In this document: piece after piece, positions 34,383 to 35,291 of the stretch | Layout of the letters: every line of letters starts with the position of its first letter | Numbering within the stretch: position 1 is the stretch's first letter | NCBI RefSeq assembly: GCF_000971765.1 | Contig: NZ_CP010907.1 | Location: 372,001 to 436,000, forward strand | Direction of reading: 5' to 3' | Origin: Candidatus Pantoea carbekii | GTDB taxonomy: Bacteria; Pseudomonadota; Gammaproteobacteria; Enterobacterales; Enterobacteriaceae | Length of the DNA: 64,000 nt | Position numbers and translations under genes: made by a program | The notes under the pieces: model-generated | The model's database searches: none | What the model saw: only the letters and a program-made list of their open reading frames with translations | What the model was told of the DNA's origin: nothing

Positions 34383-34592
34383 ATGAATAACACTAATTTG
34401 CTAATTATAGCAATTTTAAGTTCGATACTTCTTACCAGTTGTTCGAATAATTCTAAAATTGATCGGCTATCTTCAGAACTTCAAATACTTAATTCTAGAG
34501 TTGAACAATTAAGTCATGATCTTAATAAAATTCGCACTGACGTTCATACTGTTCAAGATGATTCTGCTCGTACCAATAAACATCTTGTATAG
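34383..34592 (+). CDS. lpp: Major outer-membrane (Braun) lipoprotein, C-terminally truncated
   Basis: 69-residue relative of Lpp (78 in E. coli). Signal peptide with lipobox LLTSC, so Cys20 would be lipidated; serine at +2 directs it to the outer membrane. A heptad coiled-coil region follows (KIDRLSSELQILNSRVEQLSHDL...). A TAG stop at 34590-34592 replaces the codon for the asparagine in the E. coli ending LDNMATKYRK. The downstream codon ATG then aligns with the Met of that ending, but the rest does not match. Thus the C-terminal lysine that links Lpp to peptidoglycan is missing. Follows pykF as in E. coli. AGGAAGTAGACATC precedes the ATG. Confidence 0.92.
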   Translation: MNNTNLLIIAILSSILLTSCSNNSKIDRLSSELQILNSRVEQLSHDLNKIRTDVHTVQDDSARTNKHLV

Positions 34593-34670
34593 ATGAGAAA
34601 GAGGAAAAAACGAAGAATAGATTACTTTTTATAAATAAGCAGTACAGTAGCTTAATGATGTAATTTAGAT

Positions 34671-34746
34671 CCGTCCAGTTCTGCAGAAACTAAATATTCT
34701 TAAATTTAAGCAGAGCGGATATGTGTAGTAGAACGGGCGGGTTTTT
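34671..34746 (+). terminator. GC-rich structured element with T-tail after lpp
   Basis: CCGTCC-A-GTTC (34671-34681) pairs with GAAC-GGGCGG (34731-34740) with one bulged A and one G-U pair, and TGC (34682-34684) continues the helix with GCA (34710-34712) across an internal loop. GTTTTTA follows at once. The region is clearly richer in G+C than its surroundings. Read as a Rho-independent terminator of lpp with a large structured loop, or as a small 3' RNA. Confidence 0.5.
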
Positions 34747-34871
34747 AGAAAGTTATCTTTTAGTAAAATTGAATGCGATAAAGTAACATAAGCTGAAAAA
34801 ATATTTTCACTATCTAATATTTATTGTTAAATTTGTTTAATGATATTAAATTTCAATAGTATTTACGTAAA

Positions 34872-35291
34872 TTATAAGAAAGCGCGTGCATTACGCTGGA
34901 TTGTATAAATCATTGCTTCAAGACCTTGTGAACGTAAAGGAGTCAGGTGTTTTGTTAATTCAAGTTTTTGCAGAGATTCTTGAATTTTTAGCTTAATAAT
35001 TTCTTGAACTGTTAGACCTTCATAAAAACTAAAAATTACAGCAATTAACCCTTTAACAATAGCTGCATCGCTATCACCTTCAAAGGTAATAGTTCCATCT
35101 GCTTTATAAGTCATATGAATCCAAACTTGACTCTGGCATCCAAAAATTACGTATTCTGGTTTTCTAAACTCTTCATTAAAAGATCTCGATAATTTTTCAC
35201 CTAATTCAATTAGATAAAGATATTTTTGCTCCCAATTAATACAACGATTAAAATTGTATAGCAATTTATTTTTATCTGGCAAATTAGCCAT
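34872..35291 (-). CDS. sufE: Cysteine desulfurase activator SufE
   Basis: Accepts persulfide sulfur from SufS and delivers it to SufBCD. 139 residues (E. coli 138). Acceptor Cys51 lies in VIFGCQSQVW. Last gene of the sufABCDSE operon, 17 bases after sufS, with AAGGAAT upstream. Confidence 0.96.
   Translation of the reverse strand: MANLPDKNKLLYNFNRCINWEQKYLYLIELGEKLSRSFNEEFRKPEYVIFGCQSQVWIHMTYKADGTITFEGDSDAAIVKGLIAVIFSFYEGLTVQEIIKLKIQESLQKLELTKHLTPLRSQGLEAMIYTIQRNARAFL

What the first reader, a model, noticed from the sequence alone, without database searches (positions are those of the whole stretch)
34383..34620. Braun lipoprotein without its murein-linking lysine
The lpp frame ends in TAG nine to ten codons early. 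The downstream ATG still lines up with the Met of the E. coli ending NMATKYRK, so the stop is a late event in an otherwise well-kept gene (lipobox and coiled coil intact). The product could trimerise and sit in the outer membrane but could not be attached to peptidoglycan, which would loosen the envelope and promote vesicles. This would fit a host-enclosed symbiont.
Basis: partly seen in the sequence, partly recalled or inferred. Interest (0 to 1): 0.6.

Follow-up and report, generated by a model that had tools for sequence, protein, structure and literature searches.

The report
Braun lipoprotein lacking its wall anchor
A shrunken-genome relative of E. [quoted passage not shown] related reduced genomes show the same kind of paired loss.

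Summary
The window carries one lpp gene (34383-34592, +), 69 aa, ending in TAG eight codons before the family's usual end. Signal peptide, lipobox (LTSC) and coiled coil are present; the Tyr-x-Lys tail is absent. It is the only lpp in the 1.2 Mb genome. The "aligned ATG" is chance: nothing after the TAG resembles the lost tail better than shuffles do, so this is neither a fresh nonsense mutation nor a one-base error. More important, the genome has no L,D-transpeptidase (YkuD) at all. In the sister lineage (G013) ldtB is intact and Lpp ends YRK; here the syntenic spot has lost ldtB. Across reduced relatives, 15 of 15 genera with an intact transpeptidase keep Y[RKH]K, while 4 of 7 with Lpp but no working transpeptidase have lost that motif; six of these seven still end in Lys, this genome does not. 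The likely order is linker enzyme first, tail later. Lpp here must be free-form. OmpA is intact and could still tether the outer membrane; no Pal was found. Penicillin-binding proteins and LspA remain. A loose envelope and vesicles are untested.

The parts
34383..34592 (+). lpp, truncated Braun lipoprotein, 69 aa, TAG stop at 34590-34592
   Evidence: single copy in the genome
34431..34442 (+). lipobox L-T-S-C; Cys-20 is the predicted lipidated first residue of the mature protein
   Evidence: translation; alignment with relatives
34440..34589 (+). mature coiled-coil part (50 residues), aligning to E. coli Lpp mature residues 1-49 plus Val
   Evidence: alignments
34593..34637 (+). sequence downstream of the stop; no recognisable remnant of the Y-x-K tail in any frame
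34668..34743 (+). possible long stem-loop before a T run, candidate lpp terminator
   Evidence: fold of 34590-34750: -31.8 kcal/mol, z -1.87, weak; not picked up by the simple scan
34593..34871 (.). lpp-sufE gap where E. coli carries ldtE; no L,D-transpeptidase sequence here
   Evidence: E. coli order pykF-lpp-ldtE-sufE; no YkuD match in the whole genome
32810..34222 (+). pykF, upstream neighbour (synteny)
34872..35291 (-). sufE, downstream neighbour (synteny)

Best explanation
This is a genuine Braun lipoprotein that can exist only in the free form. The lineage lost every L,D-transpeptidase, the enzymes that join the C-terminal lysine of Lpp to peptidoglycan. With no enzyme to recognise it, the Y-x-K tail came under no selection and decayed to an early stop, while the signal peptide, lipobox and coiled coil remained. 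The product should still be cut by LspA, lipidated, exported and able to form the coiled coil, as an unlinked outer-membrane lipoprotein. Retained OmpA would be the remaining non-covalent link to peptidoglycan. Shown: truncation, single copy, no YkuD domain, ldtB absent from its syntenic site, OmpA, LspA and penicillin-binding proteins present, no Pal-type protein found. Inferred: order of events, expression, localisation, trimerisation and any phenotype.
For: Single truncated lpp. No PF03734 match in the genome at 99.98% completeness, with stops read through. The sister lineage G013 (ThrS tree, support 99/97) has ldtB between a DedA-type gene and ybhL and an Lpp ending HLYRK; here the DedA-type gene is followed by a small ORF and moaE, with ldtB and ybhL gone. 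Comparative pattern: 15 of 15 genera of reduced genomes with an intact LdtA/B/C/E-type enzyme keep Y[RKH]K; of 7 with Lpp but no working enzyme, G000, G029 (QDDKK), G147 (QHHKK) and G279 (ENVASSK repeats) have lost the motif and G079, G141, G158 keep it; Fisher p = 0.005 by genus. Six of the seven still end in Lys, so the enzyme can go before the tail; the opposite order was not seen. G198 (enzyme, YHK) and G279 (no enzyme, no motif) are in one genus. The mature body stays 61% identical to G013 in nucleotides, against 6 of 30 ungapped matches in the tail (p 4e-5), with pN below pS in all pairs. Literature: a C-terminal Lys is necessary for linkage, and loss of K58 in Dickeya Lpp cut linkage about 50-fold (PMC12274547); LdtA/B/C make the link in E. 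coli (PMC8263019).
Against: The association is not significant under a strict phylogenetic count: 3 concordant and 0 discordant independent pairs at most (sign test p 0.25). The order of loss cannot be read from G000 itself, since both changes lie on its own branch. Present-day constraint on the body is not proven: dS is near saturation. No reads, transcript or protein data.
Confidence: 0.8

Rival explanations
1. lpp here is simply a pseudogene in slow decay; the intact 69 codons are a leftover and no Lpp function is retained.
For: Of reduced relatives without a transpeptidase, 18 of those examined have no Lpp match at all and G113 has a broken remnant, so Lpp often goes after the enzyme. The G000 tail is already gone.
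Against: Signal peptide, lipobox and coil have no internal stop or frameshift; pN is below pS against every relative and close to values between intact symbiont Lpps; the tail has diverged more than the body.
Confidence: 0.25
2. Sequencing or assembly error at the stop; the real protein is full length.
For: No reads are available to check.
Against: Reading through the TAG gives MRKRKKRRIDYFL, and neither other frame gives a Y-x-K ending, so no single-base error accounts for it. The genome independently lacks all linking enzymes.
Confidence: 0.03
3. The stop came first as a nonsense or frameshift event, making the linking enzymes useless, after which they were lost (the order implied by the first reader).
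For: Both changes lie on the G000 branch after the split from G013, so the order there is not directly observed.
Against: No genome examined has an intact LdtA/B/C/E-type enzyme and an Lpp without the tail, while six have no working enzyme and an Lpp still ending in Lys.
Confidence: 0.15
4. The tail is lost because the bacterium has no peptidoglycan to attach to.
For: Some symbionts with very small genomes lack a cell wall (general knowledge, not tested).
Against: Three uninterrupted PF00905 penicillin-binding transpeptidases and an OmpA with its peptidoglycan-binding domain.
Confidence: 0.04

Closest known systems
E. coli / Enterobacteriaceae Lpp (murein lipoprotein, PF04728, PRK15396)
   Same: Synteny pykF-lpp-(ldtE)-sufE, signal peptide, lipobox, coiled coil; 52% identity to an enterobacterial Lpp
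   Different: Eight C-terminal residues including Tyr-x-Lys absent; no linking enzyme in the genome
Laboratory Lpp without its C-terminal Lys, or E. coli lacking LdtA/B/C
   Same: Predicted outcome: an unlinked, free-form Lpp
   Different: Here it is a natural state, with both the residue and the enzymes missing and the deletion longer than one residue
Lpp of reduced relatives without a working transpeptidase (G029, G147, G279)
   Same: Lpp retained, no working YkuD enzyme, Y-x-K motif altered
   Different: Those still end in Lys; G000 is the only clear loss of the terminal lysine among those read

Membership tests
Lpp / Braun lipoprotein (PF04728) | Sequence match to the LPP coiled-coil family above the curated cut-off | tested here: met
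   41.5 bits against 29.1; matches 1eq7 and other Lpp chains
Lpp / Braun lipoprotein (PF04728) | Lipoprotein signal peptide with lipobox and Cys | tested here: met
   LTSC at residues 17-20; LspA is encoded
Lpp / Braun lipoprotein (PF04728) | Conserved genomic place between pykF and sufE | tested here: met
Lpp / Braun lipoprotein (PF04728) | Trimeric coiled coil in the outer membrane | not tested
   Inferred from the alignment only; no structure prediction was run
Murein-linked (bound-form) Lpp | C-terminal lysine in a Y-x-K tail | tested here: not met
Murein-linked (bound-form) Lpp | A genome-encoded Lpp-linking L,D-transpeptidase | tested here: not met
   No PF03734 match; ldtB absent at the syntenic site; no ldtE beside lpp
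Murein-linked (bound-form) Lpp | Covalent attachment shown biochemically | not testable with these tools
   Needs muropeptide or proteomic analysis

The most novel reading that the evidence does not exclude
Free-form Lpp has a function of its own that is selected for without wall linkage: after losing all L,D-transpeptidases, several symbiont lineages keep the lipobox and coiled coil while the linking tail decays.
Probability: 0.3. Interest if true: 0.6.

Novelty: new variant of a known kind. Interest (0 to 1): 0.42.

Why it matters
Only about one third of Lpp in E. coli is wall-bound (PMC8263019); what the rest, the free form, does is less understood (PMC4595779 abstract). Natural lineages that kept Lpp but lost the linking enzymes, and here the lysine too, are ready-made material for that question. 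The pattern also suggests an order for dismantling the covalent outer membrane-wall link in reduced genomes: enzyme first, tail next, the rest of Lpp last.

Tried and rejected
Aligned ATG as evidence of a recent stop: rejected, tail alignments are no better than shuffles under several scoring schemes. A frame-shifted remnant resembling G013's HLYR: a short resemblance, not significant. Second lpp copy: none. No-peptidoglycan explanation: rejected. The search for related loci with the window Lpp gave only one weak match in a Gram-positive record, not used. Literature searches turned up no paper whose title or abstract describes Lpp tail loss in symbionts; only the open-licence library was searched. 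yafK/dpaA was not retrieved as an E. coli yardstick (the stretch does not contain it); PF03734 should detect YkuD-domain proteins in general.

Full report
What is there. The window is bases 372001-436000 of contig 1 of a 1.197 Mb, 5-contig genome rated 99.98% complete, the only species of its genus held. Window GC is 30.5%. The lpp ORF at 34383-34592 encodes 69 aa ending in TAG. It matches Pfam LPP above cut-off, is closest to PRK15396 in NCBIfam though below that model's cut-off, and aligns to solved E. coli Lpp up to mature residue 49. Neighbours are pykF and sufE, as in E. coli, where ldtE lies between lpp and sufE; here that gap holds no transpeptidase. The gene is single-copy.

How much is missing. 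Relatives end ...NQRLDN-x-x-x-Y-[RKH]-K; the window ends ...NKHLV. Eight codons are missing. Reading through the stop or shifting frame does not yield a Y-x-K ending, so a single-base error is not a viable explanation. By contrast the mature body is 61% identical in nucleotides to the sister lineage, with pN below pS in all comparisons.

Linking machinery. A six-frame search with PF03734 (YkuD), reading through stops, finds nothing in this genome, while it rings in E. coli among the controls. A tree of ThrS places G013 (1.1 Mb) as sister with support 99/97. G013 has an intact LdtB-type gene (best match E. coli LdtB, 61%) between a DedA-type gene and ybhL (flank names from memory of these families), and its Lpp ends HLYRK. 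The matching region of this genome keeps the DedA-type gene and then goes to a small ORF resembling YbhQ (named from memory) and moaE; ldtB and ybhL are gone. LspA is present; OmpA is present and uninterrupted; no second PF00691 protein, and so no Pal, was found; three penicillin-binding proteins remain.

Comparison across the family. A profile search over 392 genomes of the family and targeted searches of reduced genomes gave the following. Lpp with an intact enzyme of the LdtA/B/C/E type: G005, G013, G015, G071, G073, G075, G090, G104, G124, G234, G146, G249, G152, G155, G172, G198, G214 (15 genera), all ending Y[RKH]K. Lpp with no or broken enzyme: G000 (truncated), G029 (QDDKK; enzyme a pseudogene with 7 stops), G147 (QHHKK), G279 (ENVASSK repeats), and G079, G158, G141 (Y[RK]K kept; G141 enzyme interrupted by a stop). 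By genus, Fisher p = 0.005. On the tree, parsimony needs at least 6 changes of enzyme state and 4 of motif state, but at most 3 independent contrasts show the motif difference, so the phylogenetically strict test is not significant (p 0.25). G154 and G254 were left out because their enzyme gene is split. The reduced-genome set was picked by hand from those listed, with an informal size cut; 72 genomes without Lpp were not shown individually; the set includes G075 (87% complete, 2.2 Mb) and G214 (2.1 Mb).

Reading. The simplest account is that loss of the linking enzymes made the Lpp tail dispensable, and it then decayed; the coil and lipid anchor persisted. Whether persistence reflects function or slow decay is open: many reduced genomes without the enzyme have no Lpp either.

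Place among known things. It is an Lpp by sequence, synteny and lipobox, but fails the two testable defining features of the wall-bound form. It works, most likely, like free-form Lpp, or like laboratory Lpp lacking K58 (in Dickeya, about 50-fold less linkage, PMC12274547). I rate it a new variant of a known kind.

Noticed in passing
L122 (G154) 1052-2001 and L123 (G254) 1056-2007: In two species of one genus the LdtB-type gene is split into two overlapping frames at the same place (near residue 145 of E. coli LdtB); Lpp there still ends SYRK / SYHK. Shared frameshift, slippage or a two-piece gene.
   Followed up: no
L100 (G279) and L103 (G198): Lpp in this genus carries internal tandem repeats: a lengthened coil ending YHK in G198 and repeated ENVASSK units in place of the usual tail in G279.
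   Followed up: partly
L040 (G029): LdtA/B-like pseudogene with seven in-frame stops, reading HGG where the catalytic HGC is expected; Lpp in the same genome ends QDDKK.
   Followed up: partly
L109 (G061): A reduced genome with only an LdtD-type enzyme and no Lpp match, unlike the LdtA/B/C/E types kept alongside Lpp.
   Followed up: no
window 34668-34743: Possible long stem-loop before a T run downstream of lpp; the compact GC-rich hairpin that follows lpp in several relatives was not seen here.
   Followed up: partly
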